A stretch of DNA of 64,000 nt, taken from the NCBI GenBank assembly GCA_030673965.1, contig JAUTCN010000008.1, forward strand, positions 1-64,000. Reading direction: 5' to 3'. Source of the stretch: Fusobacterium sp. JB019. GTDB taxonomy: Bacteria; Fusobacteriota; Fusobacteriia; Fusobacteriales; Fusobacteriaceae. The position numbers were made by a program, and so were the translations under genes. Positions 10,871 through 17,473 of the stretch are shown here, one piece after another. The notes below the pieces were generated by a model. It searched no databases, was not told the origin of the DNA, and worked only from the letters and a program-made list of their open reading frames with translations. Position 1 is the stretch's first letter; every line of letters begins with the position of its first letter.

Positions 10871-10892
10871 ATTAATACAGGAGATGATTAAT

Positions 10893-11417
10893 ATGTTAAA
10901 TGTAGATTTAGAAATAATTTGTGGAGATATTACTGAAATAAAATGTGACGTTATAGTAAATGCTGCCAATAATTCACTTCTTGGAGGTGGGGGAGTTGAT
11001 GGTGCTATTCATAGAGCTGCAGGTCCCAAGTTATTAGAAGAATGTAAAACTTTAAATGGTTGTGAAACAGGAGGGGCAAAAATAACTAAAGGATATGATT
11101 TACCTTCTAAATTTATAATTCATACTGTTGGACCAGTTTGGCATGGTGGAAATAATAAGGAAGCTGAAAAATTGGAAAGCTGTTATAAGGAAAGTCTTAG
11201 ATTAGCAGAAAAAAATAATTGTAAAACAATTGCTTTTCCATCTATAAGTACAGGTGTTTATTCATATCCCCTAGAAGAAGCTTCAAAAATAGCAATAAAA
11301 ACTATAATCAACTATATAAAAGAAGAAAATAAAAATATAAAAAAAATAATTATAGTGTGTTTTGATGAAATAACTTATAATTATTATGTGAATTCTAAAA
11401 ATGAAATTGATATATAA
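10893..11417 (+). CDS. Macro-domain protein (O-acetyl-ADP-ribose deacetylase-like)
   Basis: A 174-residue stand-alone macro domain of the YmdB/MacroD type. Diagnostic strings are GDIT near the start, [25 protein letters not shown] (adenine and ribose binding, catalytic Asn/Asp-containing loop), HTVGPVW, and [10 protein letters not shown] for the distal phosphate loop. Such enzymes release acetate from O-acetyl-ADP-ribose or remove ADP-ribose from acidic residues. An ATG nine bases upstream directly abuts the SD, so the second ATG, 9 nt after CAGGAG, is chosen. It follows the Fic module and precedes a sensor kinase by 28 nt; no clear functional link to either. Confidence 0.85.
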
Positions 11418-11445
11418 TTTTTAAAATTATATGAAAGGAAAAAAT

Positions 11446-13425
11446 ATGAGAAAATTTTTAATTTTTTTCTATATGCTTATAAATATTATTAGTGTATACG
11501 GGGAAAAAATATATACAGTAGGCTTTGATCCCTATGCTCCTCCCTTTCAATATATTGAAAATGGTGTGGTTAAAGGATTTAATGTTGAGCTTTTAAATAA
11601 AATTGGAAAATCTAATAATTTAAAGTTTAATTATGTTCCTATAAATAATGGAGAGGGTATAGAAAAATTAAAAACTAAAGAAGTGGATATTTTAATGGGG
11701 ATAAGGTTTCATAAGGCTGAAGAAAGAATATTAAACTTTTCAGAAAGTTTAATTCAGACAAAGGCTTGTATGGTAGCTCCTAAAAACAAGGTAGATGTTA
11801 TAAAAAATAATTTATCCTATATGCATTTTTTAGTTGCAGTGGAAAAGGACTCAATTGAATATAATTATTTGAATAGTATTAAAAGGATAAATTTCAATAC
11901 TTCCTTTGATCAAGAAACTGTTTATGATACTTTGAAATCAGGAAGAGCAGATTTTCTAGTTGGAATTAAAGAAGTAATGGCTTATTTATTATCCCAAGAT
12001 AAGATATCAGAGGACTACGTTTTTTTAGATAGTTATGATATTCCAGTTGGATATTATCTTGGAGCCTTACATGGAAATGAAGTTCTTATGGGAAATATTG
12101 ATAGAGAATTAAAAGAATTAAAGTTTAATGGAACTTATAAAAAATTATATAATAAATGGTTTGCAAATACAGATTTAGTAAAACAGATGAAGTTAATGAG
12201 GAATTTCAAAATATTAACCCTTGCAGCTATGATACTTGCAGGAATATTATTCTTATCCTTTATTTGGAACTTACAACTTAAAAAAAATGTATCTATGAAA
12301 ACAGTGGAATTAAAGGATTCTAATACTAGACTAGAAGATAAAATTGTAGAGATAAAAAATAATAACGAATTAAACTCTTTAATGTGTGAAAGTAGTCCTA
12401 GAAGTATTGCTATTTTTGATAGAGAGGGTAAAGTTAAGTTTATGAATAAGAATGCAACTTTACTTGGAGAAGTAAAGGGGGAGTTCTTAGGAAAAAATGC
12501 TTTTGAGTTACCAATTATAAAAGATATGATTGGAGGAGGACTTTTTGAACAAACAATTCATGAAAATAAAGCTCATATAACTCATGAAATAGAGGTTACA
12601 AAGGATGAAAAAACAAAATATTATAGATATACAATGTATCCATTACTTGATTATTTGAAAAAAAATTACGGAGCTTTTTTAACAATAGAAGATGTTACAG
12701 AGGAAAAATTTCTAAAGGAAAGAGCAATTGAACGGGAAAAAAATGCAGCAATAAGTAATATGGTTTCAGGAATAGCTCATGAAATTAGAAATCCATTAAC
12801 ATCTATTAAAACATATATTGAATTATTACCTTTGAAAAAAGATAATGAAAAATTTCAAAATAGGTTAGTAACAATAGTTCCAGCAGAAGTGGAAAGAGTT
12901 AGTAAATTAATAGAATCTTTAATTGATTATTCAAAACCTAAAAATAACCATAAATCAAAAACAGAAGTTCATGCATTGATAGAATCTTCCATAGGATTAT
13001 TAGAACCTATTGCTAATAAAAAAGGAATAGAAATTTTAGAATTTGTGGATAAAACAATAGTCTTAAATATAGATACATCTCAAATAAAGCAAGTTTTAAT
13101 AAATGTTTTATTGAATTCAATTCAAGCTATTGAAGAAAAGATAGAAAAATTAAAAGCAAAGGAAAAATTTTATGTAAAGGTGAGTTTATATGAAAATAAT
13201 TCTAAGATAGTTTTAGAAATTGAAGATAATGGAATTGGAATGACAAAGGAAGAAATAGAAAATATATTTGAGATTTTTTATACAACTAAAATAAAAGGAA
13301 CTGGCCTTGGATTACCTACTTCAAAACAGTTAGTTGAGGTAAATGGAGGGAAATTAGTTGTTGAAAGTGAAAAAAATAAATATACAAAAATAAAAATGAT
13401 ATTTGGTGGTGAAGTTCATGAATAA
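11446..13425 (+). CDS. Membrane sensor histidine kinase with periplasmic solute-binding domain
   Basis: A 659-residue NtrB-type kinase. Order: signal peptide (1-19), a family 3 solute-binding domain (about 22-245, YTVGFDPYAPPFQY at its start), one transmembrane helix (about 255-275), a PAS domain (about 305-430), a HisKA domain with phospho-acceptor His445 in AHEIRNP, and a HATPase_c domain (IEDNGIGM, GTGLGLP). It probably senses an amino acid or small acid outside the membrane and phosphorylates the NtrC regulator whose gene overlaps its 3' end. An upstream ATG (11431) overlaps the SD AAAGGA, so the second ATG is chosen. The binding domain may recognise the same ligand as the transport genes downstream. 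Confidence 0.85.
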   Translation: MRKFLIFFYMLINIISVYGEKIYTVGFDPYAPPFQYIENGVVKGFNVELLNKIGKSNNLKFNYVPINNGEGIEKLKTKEVDILMGIRFHKAEERILNFSESLIQTKACMVAPKNKVDVIKNNLSYMHFLVAVEKDSIEYNYLNSIKRINFNTSFDQETVYDTLKSGRADFLVGIKEVMAYLLSQDKISEDYVFLDSYDIPVGYYLGALHGNEVLMGNIDRELKELKFNGTYKKLYNKWFANTDLVKQMKLMRNFKILTLAAMILAGILFLSFIWNLQLKKNVSMKTVELKDSNTRLEDKIVEIKNNNELNSLMCESSPRSIAIFDREGKVKFMNKNATLLGEVKGEFLGKNAFELPIIKDMIGGGLFEQTIHENKAHITHEIEVTKDEKTKYYRYTMYPLLDYLKKNYGAFLTIEDVTEEKFLKERAIEREKNAAISNMVSGIAHEIRNPLTSIKTYIELLPLKKDNEKFQNRLVTIVPAEVERVSKLIESLIDYSKPKNNHKSKTEVHALIESSIGLLEPIANKKGIEILEFVDKTIVLNIDTSQIKQVLINVLLNSIQAIEEKIEKLKAKEKFYVKVSLYENNSKIVLEIEDNGIGMTKEEIENIFEIFYTTKIKGTGLGLPTSKQLVEVNGGKLVVESEKNKYTKIKMIFGGEVHE

Positions 13426-14773
13426 GAAAGTTATAATAATAGATGATGAAATATCTATTTGCGATTCTTTAGAGTTTGCTCTAGAAGATAAATACAATGT
13501 TATGTTTACAACAAATCCCTATGAAGGATTAGAAAAAATAAAGGAAAATAACATAAATGTTGTTTTGTTAGATTTAAAGATAGGAGATGTCAACGGGTTA
13601 GATATATTAGAAAAAATAAAGGAATATGATAAAAATATATCTGTAATAATGATGACAGCTTATGGATCCATAGTATCTTCAGTGGATGCTATAAAAAAGG
13701 GAGCTTTTACTTATTTAACAAAGCCTTTAAATTTAGAGGAACTATATATAAGTATTGAGCAAGCCTTAGAAATACAAAACTTAAATAGAAAAGTTGAATA
13801 TTTAAGTAAAGAACTTGAAGATAAACATAGCTATCAAGGGATAATTGGGAAAAGTGAAACTATGAAAAATATTTTTTCCCTTGTTGAAAAATTAAAGGAT
13901 GTAGATCTTGGGGTAATGATAACAGGAGAAAGTGGAACAGGTAAAGAATTAGTTGCAAGAGCTATTCATTATTCTGGAAAAAGAAAAAATGAAAACTTTG
14001 TAGAGATAAATTGTGCAGCTATACCAGAAAGCCTTTTGGAAGAAGAGTTTTTTGGACATAAAAAGGGAACATTTACAAATGCTATTTCAGATAAAGTTGG
14101 GAAATTTGAATTTGCAGATAATGGGACAATATTTTTAGATGAGATAGGGGATATGAGTCTTGGTTTACAGGGAAAGCTTCTAAGAGTTTTACAAGAACAA
14201 AAATTTAATCCTATAGGTTCAAATGAAGCAATAGAAATTAATGTTAGAGTTCTTGCAGCAACAAATAAAGATTTAAAAGAATTAATTGAAGAGGGAAAAT
14301 TTAGAGAAGATTTATATTTTAGATTAAATGTTGTGGAAATAGATTTACCTCCTTTAAGAGAGAAAAAAACTGATTTACCATTATTATTTGATCATTTTAT
14401 AAAAAAATGTAATAAACAAATGAATAGGGAAATAAAGGGAATATCTAAGGAAGCTGAAAAAGTATTGCTTAATTATGATTATCCTGGAAATGTGAGAGAG
14501 CTTTTAAATATAATGGAGCACAGTGTATTATTATCTCAAGGGGATATGATAGATATAAATTCTTTGCCTAAAAGATTGAAGGATGCAAAAGTAAATAATA
14601 ATAAACCATGTGAAGAATTACAAGGTTTAAATAATTTAAGCTTAAAAGAAATAGAAAAAATAATAATAAAAAAACGTTTAGAAAAATATAATGGAAAGAA
14701 AAAAAATACAGCAGAAAGTTTAGGAATAAGTGATAAAGGATTAAGAAATAAGATTGCTGAGTACGATTTGTAA
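13418..14773 (+). CDS. Sigma54-dependent response regulator (NtrC family)
   Basis: A 451-residue NtrC-type activator. Domains: receiver (1-120, phospho-acceptor Asp52), AAA+ sigma54-interaction domain (about 140-375; Walker A GESGTGKE, Walker B FLDEIGD) and a Fis-type HTH at the end (GISDKGLRNKI). The loop that contacts sigma54, canonically GAFTGA, reads GTFTNA at 217-222, two substitutions. It overlaps the sensor kinase by 8 nt, so the two are translationally coupled. An upstream GTG would extend it by five residues; the ATG preceding NKKVIIIDDE matches the receiver fold. A near-perfect -24/-12 promoter lies 136 bp after its stop, so the adjacent transport operon is the likely target. Confidence 0.9.
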   Translation: MNKKVIIIDDEISICDSLEFALEDKYNVMFTTNPYEGLEKIKENNINVVLLDLKIGDVNGLDILEKIKEYDKNISVIMMTAYGSIVSSVDAIKKGAFTYLTKPLNLEELYISIEQALEIQNLNRKVEYLSKELEDKHSYQGIIGKSETMKNIFSLVEKLKDVDLGVMITGESGTGKELVARAIHYSGKRKNENFVEINCAAIPESLLEEEFFGHKKGTFTNAISDKVGKFEFADNGTIFLDEIGDMSLGLQGKLLRVLQEQKFNPIGSNEAIEINVRVLAATNKDLKELIEEGKFREDLYFRLNVVEIDLPPLREKKTDLPLLFDHFIKKCNKQMNREIKGISKEAEKVLLNYDYPGNVRELLNIMEHSVLLSQGDMIDINSLPKRLKDAKVNNNKPCEELQGLNNLSLKEIEKIIIKKRLEKYNGKKKNTAESLGISDKGLRNKIAEYDL

Positions 14774-14791
14774 ATAGTGGGAGAAAAAACG

Positions 14792-14888
14792 GTAATTTTT
14801 ACAAAAAAATATTTGTAATTTTTACCGATTTTTATATATGGAGATTTTTTAAAAAATAACAGATGTCAAAAGGTGTTAAAAAATAACA
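14792..14888 (+). promoter_or_regulatory. Candidate enhancer (UAS) sites for the NtrC-type regulator
   Basis: Two identical GTAATTTTTAC dyads at 14792-14802 and 14815-14825, 23 bp apart (about two turns). Closer to the promoter, AAAAAATAACAGAT is repeated at 14851-14864 and 14878-14891, the second forming TGTTA-AAAAA-TAACA (14874-14888). All lie roughly 45-145 bp upstream of the -24/-12 start, where enhancer sites of this class occur. Which set is bound is unknown. Confidence 0.5.
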
Positions 14889-14908: not shown

Positions 14909-14923
14909 TGGCACGGAAATTGC
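14909..14923 (+). promoter_or_regulatory. Sigma54 (-24/-12) promoter
   Basis: TGGCAC-N5-TTGC, with GG at 14910-14911 and GC at 14922-14923, 10 bp between them. This matches the RpoN consensus and predicts a start near 14935, about 20 nt before the TAXI lipoprotein gene. Confidence 0.9.
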
Positions 14924-14954
14924 TTTATAATTATATCGACAACAGGGGGACATA

Positions 14955-15917
14955 ATGAATAGAAAAAGTATAATTAGTTTAATTATAGTCACTATTAGTC
15001 TTATTTTTATTACAGGTTGTAAAGAAACTCAAAAAGACCTAGTTGATAAAAATAAAAAAAAAGAAGTTAATAATTTTTTAACTATAGCAACAGGACCAAC
15101 AAGTGGATTATATTATCCAATTGGAACATCCTTTGCAAAGGCTTTAAAGAAAGTAGGATACAGAACATCTGTTCAATCAACAGGTGGTTCAGTTGAAAAT
15201 ATAAACTTAATACTTACTGAGGCTGCTGATTTAGCAATAGCCATGTCAGATTCAGTTGATCAATCAAAGGAAACAAATGAGCTAAGAGCATTAACAGGAT
15301 TATATCCAAACTATGTTCAGTTAGTTACAATAAAGAAAAACAAAATAAGAAAATTTGAAGATTTAAAAGGAAAAAGAGTAGGGATAGGAGCTTTTAATTC
15401 TGGTGTTGAATTAAATGCAAGAATGATGTATGAGGCTCACGGGATGACTTACGAAGATAGTGTTGTTCAATATTTAAATTATGGTGACGCTGTTGAAAAA
15501 ATGAAAAATGGATTAGTAGATGCAATATTTGTAACAAGTGGTATTCCTAATGAAACTATTATGGAGTTAAAAACAGATGCAGATATAGTTTTAGTGCCTA
15601 TTACAGGTAAGGGTATGAGAAATTTAAGAAAAAAATATCCGTTTTTTGTTGAAGATGTTATTCCAAAAGAAATTTATGGAACAGATAGAGATATAAAAAC
15701 AGTATCAGTTAGAAACATAATGCTAGTAAGAAAAGATTTACCAGAGGATGTTGTGTATGAAATAACAAAGGGAATATTTGATAATATTAAAAGCATAAAA
15801 GCTTCCCATGTAACATCTAAACAGAATATTTCTTTAGAAAATTCTCAAGTAGGTGTGAAGATTCCATTTCATCCAGGAGCAATAAAATATTATAAAGAAC
15901 AAGGGGTGGTAAAATAA
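14955..15917 (+). CDS. TAXI-family solute-binding lipoprotein
   Basis: A 320-residue lipoprotein (lipobox FITGC, Cys22). The mature part begins with LTIATGPTSGLYYPIG, the signature of TAXI (TRAP-associated extracytoplasmic immunogenic) binding proteins, followed by STGGSVENINLI and DLAIAMSDSVDQ, which form the two-lobed ligand cleft; a few bacterial members bind glutamate-like ligands. TAXI proteins normally serve a fused TRAP permease, but none is present; an AspT-family permease follows instead after 88 nt. The gene is the first after a sigma54 promoter and so should be controlled by the adjacent two-component system. It could either feed that permease or act as a signalling co-receptor. 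Confidence 0.85.
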   Translation: MNRKSIISLIIVTISLIFITGCKETQKDLVDKNKKKEVNNFLTIATGPTSGLYYPIGTSFAKALKKVGYRTSVQSTGGSVENINLILTEAADLAIAMSDSVDQSKETNELRALTGLYPNYVQLVTIKKNKIRKFEDLKGKRVGIGAFNSGVELNARMMYEAHGMTYEDSVVQYLNYGDAVEKMKNGLVDAIFVTSGIPNETIMELKTDADIVLVPITGKGMRNLRKKYPFFVEDVIPKEIYGTDRDIKTVSVRNIMLVRKDLPEDVVYEITKGIFDNIKSIKASHVTSKQNISLENSQVGVKIPFHPGAIKYYKEQGVVK

Positions 15918-16005
15918 TATAAACTTAACCCTTTGGAAATTTATTAGTAAATAATATGTACTTATATAAAGTATTATTTTAAATAAAATTGAGGAGGGGC
16001 AAATT

Positions 16006-17421
16006 ATGGAATTTAATTTGACGGCGTTTATATTTAATCCTTTTGTACTAATATTTTTAGTTATGACATTAGGAAACTTATTTGGAAGAATAAAGTTTGG
16101 AAGATTCAACTTTGGAATCACAGGAACTTTATTTGTAGGACTTTTAGTAGGATATTTTTTAACTAAGTATGGTGTAACTTTTGCAGAAACAAGTAAATAT
16201 TACATGAGAGCTCAAAGTGTAATTAGAGGAAAAGTTATTGGAAGACCAATATTATTCTTCTCACTACTAATATTTATCATAGCAACTGGACTTTTAGCAG
16301 CAAAGGATATGAAATATGCTATTAAGAAGTTTGGAAGACAATTTGTTATGTTAGCTATATTAGTACCATTTATTGGAGCAGCTTCTTCTTACGGATTATC
16401 TAAATTATTCGCAGGAGTTAGTCCATATCAAATTACAGGAACTTATACAGGAGCTTTAACAAGTTCAGCAGGACTTGCAGCAGCAATTGAATCTTCAGAA
16501 TTAGAATCAAAAAGATTAACAGTTGAATTTCCTAATTTAAAAGAAGAATCAAGAACAAAAATATTAACAATTATAAATAAAGCAAATGAAAGAGATGCAA
16601 AGTTACAACATCAAGAAGCACCAGAAGTATTAACAGTAGAAAATACAAAAACAATTAGTGAAAAAGATGCAGAAACATTTATATTAGAAGCTAAAGCAGG
16701 AGTTGGAGTAGGACATTCAATTGGATATCCATTTGGAGTATTATTCTTAATCTTAGGTGTTAACTTTATACCAAAACTTTTCGGATTCAGTCCAGAAGAA
16801 GAAAAGAAAAAATATTTTGCTCAAAAGAAAAAAGATTTAGAAGAAGCAGGAATAGAAGATAAAGTAGTAGAAGAAGTTAAAATGGACTTTGTTGCATTCT
16901 CACTTGCAGGATTCTTAGGATATTTCTTAGGAAGTATTAAATTCCATATTGGACCTTTAGGAACTTTAGGACTTGGAAGTATAGGTGGATCAATCATAGT
17001 ATCTCTAATCTTAGGATCTATTGGAAAAATTGGACCGATCAACTTCCGTATGAACTCTGATATTTTAGGAAAAATGAGAACTTATTTCCTAGCAATATTC
17101 TTAGCAGGAACTGGAATCAACTATGGTTACCGTGTTGTTCAAGCAATATCTGGTGACGGAGTTTCAATAGTTGTAGTTTCAATATTAGTAGCAATCATTT
17201 CAATATTAATTGCTTTCTTAGTAGGGCATTATATATTCCATATAAACTGGATGTTATTATCAGGAGCAATCACTGGTGGAATGACATCAGCTCCAGGACT
17301 TGGAGCAGCTATCGATGCAGTTGGTTGTGATGAACCAGCAATAGCATACGGAGCAACTCAGCCGTTGGCAACACTGTTTATGGTAATATTCTCGATCATA
17401 ATCCATAAACTTCCTATATAA
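16006..17421 (+). CDS. AspT/YidE-family permease
   Basis: A 471-residue polytopic membrane protein with about ten hydrophobic segments in two halves. The signature of the aspartate:alanine exchanger family (PF06826) is visible in both: GALTSSAGLAAAIES in the first half and GAITGGMTSAPGLGAAID followed by EPAIAYGATQPLA in the second. Family members such as YidE and YbjL are about 550 residues and carry two cytoplasmic RCK_C (TrkA-C) domains; here the central loop is only about 100 residues and shows no RCK_C pattern. The substrate is probably an amino or dicarboxylic acid. It is the last gene of the sigma54 operon and ends at a strong terminator. SD GAGGAGGGG. Confidence 0.78.
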   Translation: MEFNLTAFIFNPFVLIFLVMTLGNLFGRIKFGRFNFGITGTLFVGLLVGYFLTKYGVTFAETSKYYMRAQSVIRGKVIGRPILFFSLLIFIIATGLLAAKDMKYAIKKFGRQFVMLAILVPFIGAASSYGLSKLFAGVSPYQITGTYTGALTSSAGLAAAIESSELESKRLTVEFPNLKEESRTKILTIINKANERDAKLQHQEAPEVLTVENTKTISEKDAETFILEAKAGVGVGHSIGYPFGVLFLILGVNFIPKLFGFSPEEEKKKYFAQKKKDLEEAGIEDKVVEEVKMDFVAFSLAGFLGYFLGSIKFHIGPLGTLGLGSIGGSIIVSLILGSIGKIGPINFRMNSDILGKMRTYFLAIFLAGTGINYGYRVVQAISGDGVSIVVVSILVAIISILIAFLVGHYIFHINWMLLSGAITGGMTSAPGLGAAIDAVGCDEPAIAYGATQPLATLFMVIFSIIIHKLPI

Positions 17422-17431
17422 ACTGTATTAT

Positions 17432-17468
17432 AAAAAAGACACAGCTATTTAATAGCTGTGTCTTTTTT
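17432..17468. terminator. Bidirectional intrinsic terminator
   Basis: AAAAAAGACACAGCTATT / AATAGCTGTGTCTTTTTT, an 18-bp stem flanked by A and T runs, between the convergent permease and OmpA-like genes. Confidence 0.92.
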
Positions 17469-17473
17469 ATTTA

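What the first reader, a model, noticed from the sequence alone, without database searches (positions are those of the whole stretch)
14909..17421. TAXI binding protein paired with an AspT-family permease under sigma54 control
TAXI proteins are expected to work with TRAP permeases (4-TM plus 12-TM). Here the only permease is an AspT/YidE-type protein that also lacks the usual RCK_C domains. Either this is a novel binding-protein-dependent exchanger or the TAXI protein serves the sensor kinase. The gene order kinase, regulator, sigma54 promoter, binding protein, permease argues for one system.
Basis: partly seen in the sequence, partly recalled or inferred. Interest (0 to 1): 0.6.

Follow-up and report, generated by a model that had tools for sequence, protein, structure and literature searches.

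The report
Binding protein with a swapped permease
A bacterial two-component system switches on a TAXI binding protein together with an AspT-type carrier instead of the usual TRAP permease, and comparison with relatives shows that the kinase-regulator-TAXI unit is kept while the permease beside it changes, which suggests that binding proteins can be re-wired to different elevator-type carriers.

Summary
In detail: a sigma54 -24/-12 site (14909-14924), a TAXI lipoprotein (14955-15917) and a short AspT-family permease without RCK_C (16006-17421), behind an SBP_bac_3 sensor kinase and an NtrC-type regulator. The exact TAXI-AspT pair is rare: 2 species of one Fusobacteriaceae genus (98 Fusobacteriota genomes), and none beside 80 short-AspT loci elsewhere. 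It is part of something wider. Of 46 Fusobacteriota TAXI genes examined, 39 adjoin a TRAP permease. The 7 that do not all follow this same kinase-regulator pair, with AspT (2), GltS (2), a convergent GltS (1) or no permease (2) beside them. In Clostridia the nearest TAXIs follow the same pair but keep TRAP. The TAXI tree nests the AspT/GltS forms inside that TRAP-linked clade, so the TRAP permease was apparently replaced. AspT and GltS belong to one elevator fold type; TAXI-GltS is already published. Most likely this is a kinase-controlled, TAXI-assisted AspT carrier for a dicarboxylate. A TAXI that serves only the kinase remains a serious rival: in some genomes TAXI sits against the regulator gene with no permease adjacent, while gltS genes elsewhere carry the same regulatory sites. 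Nothing has been tested at the bench.

The parts
11431..13425 (+). sensor histidine kinase with extracytoplasmic SBP_bac_3 domain, PAS, HisKA, HATPase_c
   Evidence: Pfam; sensor orthologues in 7 places of 98 Fusobacteriota genomes, all followed by regulator and TAXI
13418..14773 (+). NtrC-type sigma54 activator (receiver, Sigma54_activat, HTH_8); start overlaps the kinase stop
   Evidence: Pfam; ORF and frame
14791..14826 (+). two tandem GTAATTTTTAC palindromes, likely upstream activator sites
   Evidence: sequence; identical in L044; weight matrix from other TAXI cassettes reached by 2 of 300 shuffles
14909..14924 (+). sigma54 -24/-12 promoter TGGCACGGAAATTGCT
   Evidence: sequence and genome-wide pattern count; a site at the same place in L044, L045, L046
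14955..15917 (+). TAXI-family binding protein, probable lipoprotein (FITGC, Cys22)
   Evidence: PF16868, TIGR02122; lipobox read from the sequence by eye
16006..17421 (+). short AspT/AAEx-family permease without RCK_C
   Evidence: PF06826 twice; AlphaFold model pLDDT 85.3 aligns to AspT cryo-EM structures, Z 35.1
17430..17470 (+). intrinsic terminator closing the operon

Best explanation
A kinase-controlled, sigma54-dependent, TAXI-assisted carrier in which the ancestral TRAP permease has been replaced by an AspT-type elevator carrier. Shown by sequence: the gene set, the promoter, the conserved kinase-regulator-TAXI unit, and AspT or GltS in place of TRAP inside one TAXI clade. Inferred: the regulator binds the palindromes and activates the sigma54 promoter; the membrane-tethered TAXI captures a scarce ligand and hands it to AspT, which moves it by an elevator motion. 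The ligand is probably a dicarboxylate (succinate, 2-oxoglutarate or aspartate type) rather than L-glutamate held as in VcGluP. A second role of liganded TAXI as input to the kinase is compatible with this.
For: TAXI and AspT share one sigma54 promoter with no terminator between them in the window, and the sigma54 site stands before TAXI in the second species too. TAXI-TRAP ancestry: tree of 59 TAXIs, 20-row clade 100/100, with the AspT/GltS/no-permease forms as 7 rows at 100/98 inside it; clostridial members keep kinase-regulator-TAXI-(small gene)-DctM. Every non-TRAP permease found right after a kinase-linked TAXI operon here is AspT or ESS/GltS-like, including a divergent ESS-like permease in two clostridial TAXI operons. 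AspT and GltS are listed in the same CPA-reentrant fold type (PMC8396727, passages), and the AspT model matches CitS at Z 19.6 over 378 residues. Published TAXI-GltS fusions in Lachnospiraceae show the principle for GltS (PMC12344293). 8 of 12 below-cut-off PF06826 matches in the phylum fall on PF03616 (GltS) genes. Dicarboxylate guess: the short AspT relative in C. difficile lies before CoA-transferase, aldehyde-dehydrogenase-like and further genes that fit the CD2344-CD2338 succinate operon described in print, where CD2344 is a putative succinate transporter (PMC6143707, PMC6232153, passages). The window TAXI has Met and Asn where VcGluP has Gln93 and Glu125.
Against: The pair occurs in 2 species only; AspTs at about 71% identity in other Fusobacteriaceae, including Fusobacterium vincentii, stand alone with no TAXI found and no sigma54 site in the 400 bases upstream, so AspT evidently does not need TAXI. 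By eye, no feature of the AspT sequence distinguishes the TAXI-paired forms. In L052 and L053 TAXI overlaps the regulator gene by 17 bp and has no sigma54 site. AspT-GltS profile similarity is insignificant by hhalign (probability 6%). No complex was modelled and no ligand was tested.
Confidence: 0.45

Rival explanations
1. TAXI serves the kinase: it is the ligand-binding subunit of a three-component sensor (like DctB-DctS-DctA of B. subtilis or HptA-HptS of S. aureus), and AspT or GltS imports the substrate unaided.
For: The kinase-regulator-TAXI unit stays together while the neighbouring permease varies or is absent. In L052 (G031) and L053 (G036) TAXI overlaps the regulator gene by 17 bp, and no sigma54 site was found in L052, L053 or L173 (G033), while gltS genes at other loci of G031, G033, G034 and G036 carry a sigma54 site and the same upstream motif (0, 0, 0 and 1 of 300 shuffles; 3 control sigma54 promoters 44-91 of 300). 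7 of 7 kinase orthologues in the phylum adjoin TAXI and 7 of 7 non-TRAP TAXIs adjoin the kinase. The window kinase's SBP_bac_3 domain lacks the Arg and Asp aligned to the amino-acid clamp of AncQR (that these two residues form the clamp is recalled). Precedents: PMC6978683 and PMC8534201, passages.
Against: Related kinase-regulator pairs stand beside gltS with no binding protein (L324, L325, L329, L376, L378, L380), so the kinase family does not need one. The clamp argument weakened with more data: the Arg is kept in 8 of 41 TAXI-linked kinases, 3 of 3 DctP-linked and 3 of 3 Liv-linked. In the window TAXI lies downstream of the promoter with the permease, not with the kinase. G034 seems to keep the regulator next to gltS without TAXI (genome 86% complete).
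Confidence: 0.33
2. TAXI is a leftover of the lost TRAP system, or helps the C2 TRAP permease in trans; AspT is an independent carrier that merely landed in the operon.
For: The closest TAXIs are TRAP-linked, close AspTs are TAXI-free, and a TAXI-TRAP system exists in the same genome.
Against: TAXI is under purifying selection (dN/dS 0.15); promoter and upstream sites are conserved; the C2 TRAP has its own TAXI of a different clade; G035 has the C2-type system without the window-type TAXI.
Confidence: 0.12
3. The pair is a true exchanger: TAXI delivers an incoming dicarboxylate and AspT exports a decarboxylated or reduced product in exchange.
For: The AAEx family includes the AspT exchanger and succinate/glutamate exporters (PMC9527358, passages).
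Against: No decarboxylase or product pathway was seen beside the operon; counter-transport cannot be read from sequence.
Confidence: 0.1

Closest known systems
TAXI-GltS transporter of Bordetella pertussis (BP0403/BP0402; PMC12344293, abstract and sections 17-18 read)
   Same: TAXI binding protein encoded beside a non-TRAP secondary carrier of the CPA-reentrant fold type; no TRAP genes nearby
   Different: Permease is ESS/GltS, not AspT; BP0403 has extra domains and binds L-glutamate; 'two-component' and 'AspT' have 0 occurrences in the paper. The window's genome also has a TAXI-GltS cassette, on contig C3
TAXI-TRAP systems under SBP_bac_3 kinase/NtrC control in Clostridia (L271, L272, L296, L297 and others, found here)
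   Same: Same kinase and regulator types; a sigma54 site near the TAXI start in 6 of 7 kinase-linked loci scanned; the same upstream motif by eye in L271, L272, L296 and L297; same TAXI clade
   Different: Permease is TRAP (small gene plus DctM), not AspT
C. difficile CD2344 short AspT, putative succinate transporter
   Same: Short AspT; C. difficile homologues 43-44% identical
   Different: Followed by succinate-fermentation genes; no TAXI found beside it
DctB-DctS-DctA tripartite sensor of B. subtilis (PMC6978683, passages)
   Same: Accessory receptor protein, kinase, and a secondary carrier as one sensing unit
   Different: Different protein families as far as recalled; membership not tested here
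AspT of Tetragenococcus halophilus (PDB 8y1x, 9oqy)
   Same: Fold (Z 35.1) and PF06826 twice
   Different: About 21% identity; that chain is 543 residues, this protein 471 with no RCK_C; below the TIGR03802 cut-off

Membership tests
TAXI family of binding proteins | PF16868 / TIGR02122 above curated cut-off | tested here: met
   256.1 vs 27 bits; 312.9 vs 84.35 bits
TAXI family of binding proteins | L-glutamate site of the VcGluP type (Tyr45, Gln93); a subtype feature, not a requirement of the family | tested here: not met
   Tyr kept, Gln93 aligned to Met, Glu125 to Asn
TRAP transporter | DctQ/DctM permease genes with the binding protein | tested here: not met
   AspT follows instead; both strong DctM genes of the genome lie elsewhere beside other binding proteins
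AAEx (AspT) permeases | two PF06826 domains and AspT fold | tested here: met
AAEx (AspT) permeases | TIGR03802 aspartate-alanine antiporter equivalog | tested here: not met
   110.8 vs 546.95 bits
TAXI-GltS transporter class | ESS/GltS permease (PF03616) beside TAXI | tested here: not met
   window permease is PF06826 only; the cassette on contig C3 does meet it
binding-protein-dependent secondary transporter | transport requires or is enhanced by the binding protein | not testable with these tools
   needs uptake assays
three-component sensor (binding protein, kinase, regulator) | binding protein gene adjacent to kinase and regulator genes | tested here: met
   7 of 7 in the phylum
three-component sensor (binding protein, kinase, regulator) | binding protein needed for kinase signalling | not testable with these tools
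   needs reporter assays
sigma54 operon | -24/-12 element and enhancer-binding activator | tested here: met
sigma54 operon | rpoN gene in the genome | not tested
   no search was made for it

The most novel reading that the evidence does not exclude
TAXI proteins are portable ligand-capture subunits that dock on several carrier families of the CPA-reentrant elevator fold (GltS, divergent ESS, and now AspT) and at the same time report to a dedicated SBP_bac_3 kinase. [quoted passage not shown]
Probability: 0.33. Interest if true: 0.75.

Novelty: new variant of a known kind. Interest (0 to 1): 0.53.

Why it matters
The authors of the TAXI-GltS paper wrote that further classes of binding-protein-dependent secondary transporters would test whether an elevator mechanism is what lets a carrier use a binding protein (PMC12344293 discussion). 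TAXI-AspT is such a candidate, in the same fold type, and its TAXI-free relatives at about 71% identity give a natural control. The genus also shows TRAP, GltS and AspT beside related TAXIs under one control logic, so the roles of TAXI in sensing and in transport can be separated by swapping parts.

Tried and rejected
Recurrence outside the genus: genome contigs was scanned with a 14-row short-AspT alignment. 323 relatives were confirmed and the best 80 kept. No TAXI gene was found in them by ORF; the six-frame search gave only one 25-bit hit, in L148, on the other strand about 4 kb away, left as borderline. The other 243 relatives, and long AspTs with RCK_C, were not examined.

Kinase-pocket argument: the first 27 rows suggested that kinases with a linked binding protein lose the ligand Arg while those without keep it. 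The larger set broke this (8 of 41 TAXI-linked keep it), so I dropped it as a decisive point. The labels of linked genes were assigned by hand from the ORF maps; one row labelled '?' (L375) proved TAXI-linked later and is not in the 41.

Profile comparison AspT-GltS by hhalign was insignificant; the case for a shared fold rests on the structure search and PMC8396727. GltS itself was not modelled. The TAXI model was not used further.

Rows dropped: six divergent or truncated TAXIs were left out of the 59-row tree. Two of 48 Fusobacteriota TAXI matches above 70 bits (one in G029, one partial in G028) were not fetched, so context counts are out of 46. ORF filtering hid some TAXIs behind shadow ORFs; they were recovered and all six loci have DctM beside them.

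A first sigma54 scan of clostridial loci used a wrong spacer and was redone.

Literature: no paper joining TAXI with AspT or YidE in the held library, and none on TAXI as kinase partner in the listing; subscription papers are mostly not held.

Full report
What is there. The window holds, in one direction, an SBP_bac_3 sensor kinase (11431-13425), an NtrC-type regulator overlapping it (13418-14773), a pair of GTAATTTTTAC palindromes (14791-14826), a sigma54 site (14909-14924), a TAXI protein with a lipobox (14955-15917), a 471-residue AspT-family permease without RCK_C (16006-17421) and a terminator (17430-17470).

Own genome. Three full-length TAXI genes exist. One adjoins a TRAP DctM gene (C2). 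One, on C3, is preceded by the same kinase-regulator type and followed by a GltS permease. The third is the window's. The strong DctM matches are two; the second lies behind a DctP-like protein and a DctQ-like gene. So no orphan TRAP permease was found for the window TAXI.

Recurrence. In 98 Fusobacteriota genomes, PF06826 was found above cut-off in 21 and PF16868 above cut-off in 26. TAXI beside AspT occurs in two, both of the same genus (window and L044). Of 48 TAXI matches above 70 bits, 46 were examined in context: 39 adjoin DctM and 7 do not. All 7 directly follow the SBP_bac_3 kinase and regulator: AspT downstream in 2, GltS downstream in 2 (L045, L046), GltS convergent in 1 (L053), no permease adjacent in 2 (L052, L173). 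The kinase sensor profile finds exactly those 7 places at 383-398 bits; the next match is 79 bits. Outside, none of the 80 best short-AspT loci from a scan of the species genomes has a clear TAXI within the flanks held. In the short-AspT loci whose neighbours were scanned, CoA-transferase and methylmalonyl-CoA mutase genes or CoA-transferase, aldehyde and alcohol dehydrogenase genes occur, and many of the 80 show the same gene sizes and starts by eye. The C. difficile locus fits the CD2344 succinate operon described in print.

Origin. The TAXIs most like the window's in other genomes come from Clostridia. Where fetched they usually lie in the order kinase, regulator, TAXI, small gene, DctM. 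Of 18 clostridial and related loci scanned, a sigma54 site lies near the called TAXI start in 6 (L271, L272, L273, L296, L297, L299), all kinase-linked; the seventh kinase-linked locus, L282, has one only at -373; the other 11 have none. In a 59-row TAXI tree the clostridial kinase-linked TRAP forms branch first in the 20-row clade together with some TRAP forms without this kinase, a TRAP-linked pair of the window's genus (L051, L169) comes next, and the AspT, GltS and no-permease forms make a 7-row clade at 100/98. The direct reading is loss of the TRAP permease and its replacement by AspT or GltS while kinase, regulator and TAXI stayed.

Regulon. A weight matrix built from twelve half-sites of six TAXI cassettes (not from stand-alone gltS genes) was run on 200 bases upstream of sigma54 sites. 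It marks four stand-alone gltS genes of G031, G033, G034 and G036 (0, 0, 0, 1 of 300 shuffles as good; their sites in L215, L212, L214, L216). It marks the window and L044 more weakly (2 and 4 of 300). It does not mark three other sigma54 promoters of the genus (44, 91, 50 of 300). So where TAXI sits with the kinase genes and no permease, a gltS elsewhere probably belongs to the same control circuit. This favours a link between TAXI and kinase, but does not exclude TAXI serving that GltS in trans.

How it may work. For the carrier reading: TAXI and AspT share a promoter; the non-TRAP partners seen here are all AspT or ESS-like, including a 464-residue ESS-like permease without a meaningful Pfam or NCBIfam match in two clostridial TAXI operons with opine-type dehydrogenases; AspT and GltS are assigned to one fold type; and the AspT model matches AspT structures at Z 35.1 and CitS at Z 19.6. 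For the sensor reading: the constant unit is kinase-regulator-TAXI; in L052 and L053 TAXI overlaps the regulator gene; binding-protein co-sensors are known. Against a strict sensor reading: relatives of this kinase stand beside gltS, Liv and Opp operons, so it looks like a general local activator of transport operons. I put the carrier reading at 0.45 (a double role is allowed) and sensor-only at 0.33.

Ligand. The VcGluP contacts Gln93 and Glu125 align to Met and Asn in the window TAXI and in most relatives of the same clade, so glutamate bound as in VcGluP is unlikely. AAEx relatives handle aspartate, succinate and glutamate, hence the dicarboxylate guess, which is weak.

Novelty. TAXI-GltS is published (PMC12344293). 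A TAXI-AspT pair, and a TAXI module with exchangeable permeases under one kinase, were not found in the searches made. This is a new variant of a known kind, at present confined to one genus for the AspT form.

Noticed in passing
L379:5157-10310 and L382:2143-5975: Two clostridial kinase-regulator-TAXI operons with an octopine-dehydrogenase family gene (and in L379 an ornithine cyclodeaminase family gene) end in a 464-residue ESS-like permease that no Pfam or NCBIfam model matches (hhalign to GltS 98.5%). Possibly an opine uptake system with a further TAXI partner.
   Followed up: partly
L318-L325, L329, L376-L398: The SBP_bac_3 kinase / NtrC regulator pair stands beside very different transport operons in Clostridia: TAXI-TRAP, DctP-type TRAP, Liv ABC, Opp ABC, gltS (twice with three gltS-type genes in a row; in L324 beside urocanase and formiminotransferase genes).
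   Followed up: partly
L212, L214, L215, L216: Stand-alone gltS genes with sigma54 promoters and shared upstream motifs in four species of the window's genus.
   Followed up: partly
L227: In G034 the regulator gene lies convergent and directly next to gltS with no TAXI between, and no TAXI was found in that genome (86% complete): an apparent loss of TAXI.
   Followed up: no
NZ_CP084075.1 (L401): A 2.1 Mb 'plasmid' of Fusobacterium vincentii SB055 with what look like cell-wall and cell-division genes beside the AspT gene looks like a chromosome deposited as a plasmid.
   Followed up: no
L386 and L388: Two kinase-regulator loci carry two TAXI genes each before DctM, with other genes between.
   Followed up: no
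window 10884-11417: A macro-domain protein (PF01661) lies directly upstream of the kinase gene.
   Followed up: no
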